This document shows, in pieces, positions 3,140 to 23,574 of a stretch of 64,000 bases of DNA. Positions within the stretch are counted from its first letter, which is position 1, and each line of letters starts with the position of its first letter. This stretch comes from Arcanobacterium phocae (GTDB taxonomy: Bacteria > Actinomycetota > Actinomycetes > Actinomycetales > Actinomycetaceae): positions 1,240,001 to 1,304,000 of the forward strand of contig NZ_LT629804.1 of NCBI RefSeq assembly GCF_900105865.1, given 5' to 3'. The notes beneath the pieces are model-generated. The model did not search any database. It saw only the letters and a list, made by a program, of their open reading frames with translations, and was not told the origin of the DNA. A program made the translations under genes and the position numbers.

Positions 3140-3175
3140 CTAGTGAGGCCTGGCCAGTAAAGCTAGGCCTCACTA
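3140..3175. terminator. Hairpin between convergent MBL and bacteriocin-like genes
   Basis: Perfect 12-bp arms CTAGTGAGGCCT/AGGCCTCACTAG sit between two convergent genes. Neither side has a strong T-run, so it may act in both directions with modest efficiency. Confidence 0.6.
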
Positions 3176-3209
3176 GTGTCAGAGCCGTATGTCGGGTGTT
3201 TGAGTAGTT

Positions 3210-3989
3210 TTATGTCCATGAGTGAGAGATGCATGTGACAAGATCTGCGGACTTGATTCCGGTTGCAAGTCCAACACAAAATACACATCCTCCACCAAAT
3301 GTGGCGGCGCATGCTGCACCGCATACAAAAGCGATCGTGCCAGCTACCCAGCTGTTGATGTGTAGTCTACCCAAACAGTCGTTCAGCTTATTCCAATCAA
3401 GGCCAGCTAAAGTGATCTCAGTTGTATTTTGAGCTTCAGTTTCGGATGGTAATTCGATATTTTTATTGTGGATTAGTTCGTTGTCAGCCCAAGATTTTAC
3501 ATTGGCATTATGTGCGTCCTTGATTGTTGTATATATTTCAGTAGTGTGGATCTCATCTTGTTCGAAATAAAAAACTACACGATTAACTGCGAGAAGATCT
3601 TCTGGTCCGCTTAACGGAACTGAGATCAGTCGAGTGTTTTTGTAGCTAAAAGCATCCGCTCTATCCCAGTCTAGTGATTCTAGGGAGTTTGGCATGTAGT
3701 TTAACATTTTTGCTTGGACTGTGAGGGAGGATGATTCGTCTTCTGGAAGTCTGCGGAGGTCAGATGCTATCGACATTGCTTCATGTCCTGCGGATATAGA
3801 AGAAAGTGGACTGTCGAGATTCACCATTGGTAACGTTTCGATGAGCTTAGAGCTCTCAACATTAGTATTAGTTTTAGCTGTTACTGCACTGGTACCTATA
3901 CTTGAAATTCCTTCTTGAATGTTTGCCGTGGAACTGCGCGTTTGAGCTTGTACTGGACGATCAGATTCTAGATAGGGGGGGGGAGACAA
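3210..3989 (-). CDS. Bacteriocin-like protein with Cys-rich halocin C8-like C-terminus (downstream part of a split gene)
   Basis: A 259-residue frame that would start at a TTG with no ribosome binding site inside the upstream ORF. The first ~200 residues are Ser/Thr-rich and acidic without recognisable motifs. The last ~55 hold six Cys in a small-residue-rich hydrophobic segment (NDC, VCGAAC, GGGCVFC, VTC), with Trp before them. That resembles the halocin C8-like bacteriocin domain; this assignment is from memory of the family pattern. Removing one C from the C9 tract at 3983-3975 fuses it to the 97-residue ORF upstream, giving a protein of about 347 residues. That provides the membrane or signal segment this frame lacks. 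Confidence 0.5.
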   Translation of the reverse strand: MSPPPYLESDRPVQAQTRSSTANIQEGISSIGTSAVTAKTNTNVESSKLIETLPMVNLDSPLSSISAGHEAMSIASDLRRLPEDESSSLTVQAKMLNYMPNSLESLDWDRADAFSYKNTRLISVPLSGPEDLLAVNRVVFYFEQDEIHTTEIYTTIKDAHNANVKSWADNELIHNKNIELPSETEAQNTTEITLAGLDWNKLNDCLGRLHINSWVAGTIAFVCGAACAATFGGGCVFCVGLATGIKSADLVTCISHSWT

Positions 3990-4254
3990 GAAAGGACGCT
4001 AAGATACCGGCTAAGACGGCCGCGGCGACAATAATATATAGTTTAGTGCGGGACATAATATGAGATATTTTCGCTACAGCGTAGGTGAGGGCAAGTGTCA
4101 TAAAGACTAGTGCGATAATGCTGAAGGAAGCTGCATATCTATGGAATTTTTCCATCGTAGCGAGATATGAGGCGACTGTACTCAAACCTAGGAGAGTAAT
4201 TACAACAATTTTACTGCGGACAATGCTTGATTTTTCGTGATGTATAGACTTCAT
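3961..4254 (-). CDS. Membrane protein (N-terminal part of the split bacteriocin-like gene)
   Basis: A 97-residue ORF with a good AGGAGG-type ribosome binding site just before its ATG. It has three hydrophobic segments: about residues 17-34, 42-60 and 70-90. The last segment, preceded by MSRTK, reads like a Sec signal peptide or membrane anchor. It ends just after a run of nine C. With eight C, translation continues into the 259-residue Cys-rich frame. It could be a separate small immunity-type membrane protein or the N-terminus of one precursor; the position of the tract favours the latter. Confidence 0.5.
   Translation of the reverse strand: MKSIHHEKSSIVRSKIVVITLLGLSTVASYLATMEKFHRYAASFSIIALVFMTLALTYAVAKISHIMSRTKLYIIVAAAVLAGILASFLVSPPLSRI
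3975..3983. repeat. G9/C9 homopolymer at the junction of the split gene
   Basis: Nine consecutive G (C on the coding strand). At this length the upstream frame stops four codons later; at eight or eleven it joins the downstream frame. A candidate phase-variation switch. Confidence 0.75.
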
Positions 4255-4378: not shown

Positions 4379-4905
4379 GGCTGATAATCCTGAATAATCA
4401 GCACTTCGAACTCCGGCAGACATTCGAGCTATTTATGGTGTGGTAACTGAAGAGGAAGACGATAAAGCAGATGTTCCAGATGGGAAGCTATTCCGTACCC
4501 GACCAGTGCAAGTGATCACCACATCTCAGAAAGTCATACATACGGGTTTTCGGCCGGAACAGAAAATAATGGCGGGTCTAGAATCAATGTTGCAGAAATT
4601 AGCGCGCTTGTCTGAGTCGTATGTTATCTCCCATATTGATCAAAAAGACCCCGTACTGCAAACAGTTCATCGAGGTGGATAATGATTGTTCGACGATTTT
4701 ATGGGTTCTTGCCCAAGCAGAATTGTTTTCCGGTGGGACTGCGATGGAACGTCGAGAATTAGAACACCACGTAAAGAAATCGACTCCTACGATCAGCCGT
4801 CACATTAAGCATCTTGCAGAAGAAGGATGGGTAGAAGTGGTGTCTCAACGTCCCGTCACTATGAGGCTGTCCGACGAGGGTATGTCTCGGCTCGGCCTGC
4901 GGTAG
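4379..4905 (+). pseudogene. Broken Fic-family-like gene
   Basis: Two overlapping frames look like the ends of one gene. The first (4440-4682, extending upstream without a clear start) resembles the N-terminal part of Fic proteins: a TEEEDDKADVPDGKLFRTRPV-like stretch followed by VIHTGFRPEQKI. The second (4621-4905) is a winged-helix-like tail (ISRHIKHLAEEGWVEVV), as at the end of some Fic proteins. The frame changes near 4660-4680, and the catalytic HPFxxGNGR core is absent. It is therefore most likely a decayed gene with an internal deletion. The family assignment rests on weak similarity; a small wHTH regulator (4621-4905) is the alternative. Confidence 0.4.
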
Positions 4906-22871: not shown

Positions 22872-22899
22872 TTGACTCGCGGGGGGGGGGTGCTACTCT
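22872..22899 (+). promoter_or_regulatory. Promoter with G10 tract in the spacer
   Basis: -35 TTGACT (22872-22877), a 16-nt spacer made of CGC, ten G and TGC, and extended -10 TGC-TACTCT (hexamer 22894-22899). The G10 run occupies 22881-22890. Gain or loss of G would move the spacer between about 15 and 18 nt. A candidate phase-variable promoter of the next gene. Confidence 0.55.
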
Positions 22900-22941
22900 C
22901 ATCTTGGAATGCAGAGTATCATACTTAGAAGGATGGATAAT

Positions 22942-23574
22942 ATGTCGGGAAATATTCAAAATGCGACTGATTTTCAATTGGCTCCTGGAGAACAAGCTGT
23001 ATATGGAGATAAGTTTTTGACTTCCCTCTTCACTCCCTATATGCCGACTCAACTAATGTGTTCGACCACACGTTTCGTTTATAAGGCTCCCAATGCGATC
23101 TTGGGTCTTATCCCGCTTGGTGGGGATCAATCTATTATGCCAATTGCTAATATCGCTGCAGTAAATACTTCACAAAAGCTATATATCGGTCGCGCATTCG
23201 CAGGGGGATTAGCTTTTATCATTGGACTTGCTAGTCTATCGGCACCAGCTTTTGGTGCGCTACTGATGTTATTCGGGGCAACGTTGCTTCTTACCTGCTT
23301 CCCTGCAGTACTCCAAGTTCAAAATCCTGCAGGCGGAAAAGTTGAAATTGCTGTTTCGTTTGTCGATCAAGCGAAACTCAAAAAGTTTGCCACAGAGCTT
23401 CAAAACCGAGTATTTGCGGATCAAGCTCAGGTGCGTCATGATCAAGCTCAGGACATGCGCGCTCAGCAAGCAATGCTTGCTCAACTGACATTACAACAGC
23501 AGATGATGGCTAACCAAAACGCACAAAATCTCGCACAGCAAAATCAGCAGAATCCGCCAGCGCCGCAGATGTGA
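22942..23574 (+). CDS. Membrane protein with PH-like N-terminus and Gln-rich tail
   Basis: A 210-residue protein from ATG 22942 (AGAAGG 9 nt upstream; earlier ATGs at 22909 and 22933 are less well placed). About residues 10-75 read like a bacterial PH-type domain (LAPGEQAVYGDKFL, STTRFVYKAPN). A hydrophobic hairpin at about 83-123 follows (AFAGGLAFIIGLASLSAPAF, then ALLMLFGATLLLTCF). The tail is a charged and then Gln/Asn-rich coiled coil ending PPAPQM. I do not recognise a specific family. It lies between two inverted IS copies, and its promoter contains G10, so expression may vary between cells. Confidence 0.6.
   Translation: MSGNIQNATDFQLAPGEQAVYGDKFLTSLFTPYMPTQLMCSTTRFVYKAPNAILGLIPLGGDQSIMPIANIAAVNTSQKLYIGRAFAGGLAFIIGLASLSAPAFGALLMLFGATLLLTCFPAVLQVQNPAGGKVEIAVSFVDQAKLKKFATELQNRVFADQAQVRHDQAQDMRAQQAMLAQLTLQQQMMANQNAQNLAQQNQQNPPAPQM

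What the first reader, a model, noticed from the sequence alone, without database searches (positions are those of the whole stretch)
3210..4254. C9 tract splits a secreted, Cys-rich bacteriocin-like gene: candidate frame-switching contingency locus
Seen: an ORF with a good ribosome binding site and a signal/anchor-like helix ends four codons after a run of nine C. The next frame has no ribosome binding site, is closed by TAG just upstream, and lacks any export signal. Deleting one C (or adding two) yields one 347-residue protein with N-terminal hydrophobic segments and a six-Cys C-terminal segment. Known: long G/C runs in coding sequence drive phase variation in many host-associated bacteria. 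Inference: expression of this halocin C8-like product may switch between cells.
Basis: partly seen in the sequence, partly recalled or inferred. Interest (0 to 1): 0.78.

Follow-up and report, generated by a model that had tools for sequence, protein, structure and literature searches.

The report
Poly-C run splits a peptide-precursor gene
In a bacterium of the genus Arcanobacterium, a gene for a secreted, cysteine-rich, possibly antibacterial peptide is cut into two reading frames at a run of nine C, most likely a switch-prone site of a known kind, although ordinary gene decay or a sequencing error cannot yet be excluded.

Summary
In detail: on the minus strand a 97-aa frame with a good ribosome site and three hydrophobic helices overlaps, at nine C (3975-3983), a 259-aa frame without ribosome site or export signal and with six C-terminal cysteines. 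C/G runs of 9-10 exceed what the fall from runs of 6 to 7 predicts. Similar runs lie in or before pilin, restriction-modification and secreted-protein frames of sister species, and one run elsewhere in the window differs in length between species. Slippage switching is my best reading (0.5), but no length variation was seen at this locus. Against it: the syntenic copy of A. phocae 20171 is broken in the same phase without any C run and is decayed further, and the two copies differ almost neutrally. 'Halocin C8-like' fails its family model. Decisive: run lengths in the 41 public A. phocae drafts and in raw reads. A new member of a known kind.

The parts
3961..4254 (-). N-frame: 97-aa membrane piece, ATG with AGGAGG ribosome site, three hydrophobic helices; the third, next to the run, could serve as signal or anchor
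3975..3983 (-). run of nine C (nine G on the + strand) at which the two frames are out of register
3210..3989 (-). C-frame: 259 aa without ribosome site or export signal, ends in a six-cysteine segment conserved in relatives
3140..3176 (.). inverted repeat (15-base arms, 93%, 7 between) between this gene and the MBL-fold gene; a two-way terminator is possible, but the T-run terminator scan found none
4440..4905 (+). remnants (80- and 94-aa frames) of a gene that four other Arcanobacterium have at this place; Fic domain in strain 2701
22872..22899 (+). second long run of the window: G10 (22881-22890) in a 16-base spacer between TTGACT and TACTCT before a 221-aa frame (22909-23574); comparison locus, not part of the gene

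Best explanation
The two frames are one gene for a membrane-anchored or secreted precursor whose C-terminal six-cysteine segment is probably released as an antimicrobial-like peptide. The C run just behind the third helix is prone to slipped-strand mispairing. In the sequenced allele translation stops shortly behind the membrane part, so no six-Cys product is exported; cells with another run length would make it. Shown: the anatomy, the conserved family, the unusual run, and a run-length difference between species at another locus of the window. Inferred: reversible switching here, export and processing, antimicrobial function.
For: A. haemolyticum (G096) encodes three helices and the six-Cys end in one 303-aa frame. 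The C-frame is open for 259 codons to the family's C-terminus with all six Cys. Where the relatives are informative the window keeps their residue in 19 of 24 differences from A. phocae 20171 (sign test 0.007); with A. haemolyticum alone 13 of 20 (0.26). Runs of 9-10 form a flat tail in the genome. Sister-species examples: G10 behind the signal-peptide-like start of a pilin frame (L077), G9 where a methylase/specificity frame ends and another specificity frame is open (L086). G10 against G8 at window 22881 and in strain 2701. Precedents: P. acnes tracts (PMC4746626, passages and one section), Neisseria nap peptides (PMC11798529, passages).
Against: No length variation seen at this locus. The only close relative, A. 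phocae 20171, has no C run there, is broken in the same phase (its N-frame ends at the same TGA) and is further decayed. C-part dN/dS is 0.80 with changes 28/23/22 over codon positions, nearly neutral. In P. acnes most tract lengths followed clades, which its authors read as slow accumulation. The neighbouring Fic gene is a remnant, so the locus is decaying. Many sister-species runs have no evident gene effect.
Confidence: 0.5

Rival explanations
1. Ordinary decay: an accessory gene broke before or soon after the split from A. phocae 20171 and is being lost; the C run is a by-product.
For: Same broken phase in 20171, three one-base indels in its C-part, a fourth at the stop codon, a TAA at codon 6 of the C-frame; dN/dS 0.80; neighbouring Fic gene also a remnant. 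Absence of stops in the window C-frame is no strong argument: P(0 stops) is 0.22-0.45 in neutral simulations.
Against: Window C-frame has no indel or stop (4 against 0 indels, sign test 0.125) and keeps the relatives' residues 19 to 5.
Confidence: 0.3
2. Run-length error in the assembly; the gene is intact.
For: Homopolymers are the classic site of consensus errors; the read type of this genome is unknown here.
Against: One contig, 99.89% complete. The break is also shared in phase by 20171, a separate assembly. Neither excludes an error here.
Confidence: 0.14
3. Programmed ribosomal frameshifting at the run makes both products from one allele.
For: Overlapping frames at a run that reads as proline codons; same phase in 20171.
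Against: 20171 has no such run and a stop in the second frame there; A. haemolyticum uses a single frame. No stimulating element was sought.
Confidence: 0.04

Closest known systems
Homopolymeric-tract phase variation (contingency loci), e.g. tracts of Propionibacterium acnes (PMC4746626)
   Same: Long G/C run inside a reading frame; frame register depends on run length; same phylum
   Different: No length variation shown at this locus; in P. acnes 54 tracts were polymorphic across 90 genomes
Neisseria nap island bacteriocin-like peptides (PMC11798529)
   Same: Bacteriocin-like small-peptide genes with homopolymeric tracts in their frames, read by the authors as likely phase variable
   Different: Unrelated proteins as described there (GG-leader peptides with C39 peptidase sites); no sequence comparison made
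Halocin C8 / Gram-positive C8-like immunity-bacteriocin fusion (TIGR04449, TIGR04450)
   Same: Cys-rich hydrophobic C-terminal segment behind a longer N-terminal part (recalled layout); one Streptomyces relative scores 13.2 bits with TIGR04450
   Different: Below the cut-off of 27 bits; window protein matches neither model
phrog_33667 (phage-protein family of unknown function)
   Same: C-terminal matches: E 1.2e-4 for the window C-frame, 2.3e-12, 2.4e-7, 3.9e-9 and 1.1e-6 for four of six relatives
   Different: The A. haemolyticum and G110 relatives do not match it; tblastn of the window C-frame in phage records: no match
Arcanocin and aureocin A53-like leaderless bacteriocins of Arcanobacterium (PMC11580447, passages)
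   Same: Bacteriocins of the same genus, 18 core peptides counted in A. phocae
   Different: Leaderless short peptides by description; no sequence comparison made

Membership tests
Phase-variable contingency locus | Long simple repeat in or before a gene such that its length sets frame or expression | tested here: met
   C9 at the point where the two frames overlap out of register
Phase-variable contingency locus | Repeat length varies between cells or strains of one species | not testable with these tools
   One genome per species held, no reads; the nearest relative lacks the run
Phase-variable contingency locus | One of the states gives a complete gene product as in relatives | tested here: inconclusive
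   A. haemolyticum has the complete layout in one frame; the window halves were compared apart and not joined
Halocin C8 domain (TIGR04449) | Score over the curated cut-off | tested here: not met
   No match in the own genome at E up to 1; 2 of 9 genus genomes have matches below cut-off elsewhere; controls ring in 4 of 14, over cut-off in 1
Gram-positive C8-like immunity/bacteriocin fusion (TIGR04450) | Score over the curated cut-off | tested here: not met
   0 of 396 genomes at E 0.01, own included; controls ring in 1 of 14, none over cut-off; best relative 13.2 bits against 27
Bacteriocin (function) | Released peptide that inhibits other bacteria, with immunity | not testable with these tools
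   Only layout and Cys pattern support it; two-helix frames lie next to several relatives

The most novel reading that the evidence does not exclude
A peptide-weapon gene with a built-in asymmetric switch: the run lies behind the two-helix part that relatives encode as a separate, immunity-like frame, so both phases would make the protective membrane part and only one phase the peptide. Silent cells would stay protected from their producing sisters.
Probability: 0.12. Interest if true: 0.7.

Novelty: new member of a known kind. Interest (0 to 1): 0.45.

Why it matters
It points to run-based phase variation as a habit of Arcanobacterium (pilin, restriction-modification, secreted-protein frames). 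I found no paper on that: (Arcanobacterium with phase variation) listed 2 papers and neither title is about it, one search listed none, and one search listed 10 of 470 papers, none with the word Arcanobacterium, so it settles little. It also marks a six-Cys precursor family in Actinomycetota without a Pfam or NCBIfam name. If the run switches, it would be a further case of random on/off control of a bacteriocin-like gene, testable at once in 41 public A. phocae drafts (PMC8235330, passages).

Tried and rejected
Halocin C8 membership: rejected by models; the only NCBIfam match of the C-frame is a cobalt transporter at E 0.004, far under its cut-off. Pfam: nothing over a cut-off for the two window frames or for seven related frames. 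Solved structures with profile A3: best E 0.21. AlphaFold of the last 70 residues alone: four helices, mean pLDDT 63; too weak, no fold search made. Phage records: no match. Viral contigs were scanned with a Streptomyces relative only: none confirmed. Plasmids: one Streptomyces relative. Promoter and T-run terminator scans: nothing above chance. Neutral stop simulation: not decisive. All 7 places with runs of 8 or more in the own genome were read: this one; one C9 a single base before the ATG of a frame that looks like an HTH regulator (by eye); G10 in a promoter-like spacer; G10 about 225 bases behind the tmRNA gene; three G8 between longer frames. In sister species 28 fetched loci from seven genomes were read; several (e.g. 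L080, L083, L085) show no evident gene effect. Runs of A. phocae 20171 were not inspected (many lie at contig ends), nor one G128 run of nine, and runs of exactly eight in G024, G121, G128 and G135 were not fetched.

Full report
WHAT IS THERE. On the minus strand a 97-codon frame (4254-3961) starts with ATG behind AGGAGG and has three hydrophobic helices. Nine C at 3975-3983 follow the third helix; the frame ends at TGA a few codons later. A 259-codon frame (3989-3210) opens at a TTG without a ribosome site, four codons behind a TAG, has no export signal and ends in a segment with six cysteines.

WHOSE GENOME. The window lies in a one-contig genome of 1,998,242 bases. One locus was confirmed in the named genome collection, in A. 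phocae strain 20171 (the tool says that the window's own genome or one very near may be left out). The neighbouring MBL-fold gene differs from that of 20171 at 17 of 798 bases, all silent. So the window is an Arcanobacterium very near A. phocae; that it is the A. phocae type strain, which has a complete genome, is a guess.

ONE GENE OR TWO. The C-frame has matches in 6 of 151 genomes of the family, own included; a four-row profile in 5 of 394 of the class, own included, two of them weak and short; and one Streptomyces plasmid. A. haemolyticum has three helices and the six-Cys end in one 303-aa frame. In G110 a two-helix frame overlaps the start of a frame with one helix and the six-Cys end. 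The Streptomyces plasmid and the unnamed G482 have a two-helix frame upstream of a precursor frame; the precursor's start looks like a signal peptide by eye, though the hydropathy script did not flag it in the plasmid copy. G028 has a helix near its N-terminus and a two-helix frame downstream. G006 has the C-part only in short broken frames on a 25-kb contig. All six Cys are invariant in five rows, five of the six when G028 is included. So the window's frames are halves of one precursor, and the first two helices look like a unit that elsewhere is encoded apart, perhaps immunity (inference).

THE RUN. Expected numbers of C/G runs of 6, 7, 8, 9, 10 in Markov copies of the window are 8.9, 2.1, 0.38, 0.03, 0.03; seen 1, 0, 0, 1, 1. 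In the genome they are 46, 5, 3, 2, 2 (worked out): a fall to a ninth from 6 to 7, then a flat tail. All 9 genus genomes have runs of 8 or more. I read 28 loci of seven sister genomes, not every place. Clear cases: G10 behind the signal-like start of a pilin frame (GramPos_pilinD1, SpaA; L077); two G9 in a methylase/specificity locus, one where a frame ends and a second specificity frame is open (L086; domains); G13 before a secreted-protein-like frame (L076); G10 and G11 before frames of G054 and G121 that look alike by eye (L089, L095). In the window G10 at 22881-22890 fills a 16-base spacer between TTGACT and TACTCT before a 221-aa frame; strain 2701 has the 99% identical segment with G8, spacer 14. 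Runs without evident effect are told under Tried and rejected.

AGE OF THE BREAK. A. phocae 20171 has the gene at the same place without a C run; it is three bases shorter there, so its N-frame ends at the same TGA. It has three one-base indels in the C-part, a fourth at the stop codon, and a TAA at codon 6. dN/dS between the two copies is 0.80 for the C-part (250 codons, changes 28/23/22 by codon position), 0.57 for the N-part and 0 for the neighbour. That looks like decay, and part of it happened on the 20171 side. The window side has no indel or stop in the C-frame and keeps the relatives' residue in 19 of 24 informative differences among 48 (sign test 0.007; 13 of 20, 0.26, with A. haemolyticum alone). 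I read this as a copy that was useful until recently or still is; it is suggestive, not proof, and the absence of stops alone would be unremarkable.

THE SITE. Between the same neighbours four other Arcanobacterium (G121, G054, G024, G096) have a gene of which two parts match the window's 4440-4905; in the two that I read it is a 398- or 446-aa frame, with a Fic domain by Pfam in G054. In G135 and G078 rph follows the MBL gene closely; in G128 neither was found in the stretch. The window and 20171 hold remnants only, so the precursor gene looks like an accessory insertion at a decayed locus. A. haemolyticum carries its precursor gene elsewhere.

MECHANISM AND VERDICT. Most likely (0.5) a slippage-prone frame switch of a secreted-peptide precursor, caught in the phase that yields only the membrane part. 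Rivals: plain decay (0.3), run-length error (0.14), programmed frameshifting (0.04). It is a new member of a known kind. Precedents: P. acnes tracts, whose lengths mostly followed clades (PMC4746626: passages, one section), and the Neisseria nap peptides (PMC11798529, passages). The genus encodes other, leaderless bacteriocins (PMC11580447, passages). The paper on 42 A. phocae genomes has no occurrence of 'bacteriocin', 'homopolymer' or 'phase' in its main text.

Noticed in passing
window 22872-22899, frame 22909-23574: G10 in a promoter-like spacer before a 221-aa frame with no Pfam match, next to transposase-like frames; strain 2701 carries the nearly identical segment with G8. A second phase-variation candidate with an observed length difference.
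   Followed up: partly
window 4440-4905: Remnants of a Fic-domain gene that is a long open frame at the same place in sister species; the region with the Fic motif is missing here.
   Followed up: partly
own genome 371399-371407 (L028:3400-3408): C9 (G9 on the coding strand) a single base before the ATG of a frame that looks like an HTH regulator by eye, at the place of the ribosome site.
   Followed up: no
L077:1524-1533 and L086:1476-1484, 4411-4419 (G078): G10 behind the signal-like start of a pilin frame, and two G9 in a methylase/specificity locus: strong phase-variation candidates in a sister species.
   Followed up: partly
L029:3336-3345 (own genome 1136835): G10 about 225 bases behind the tmRNA gene, with no long frame nearby.
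   Followed up: no
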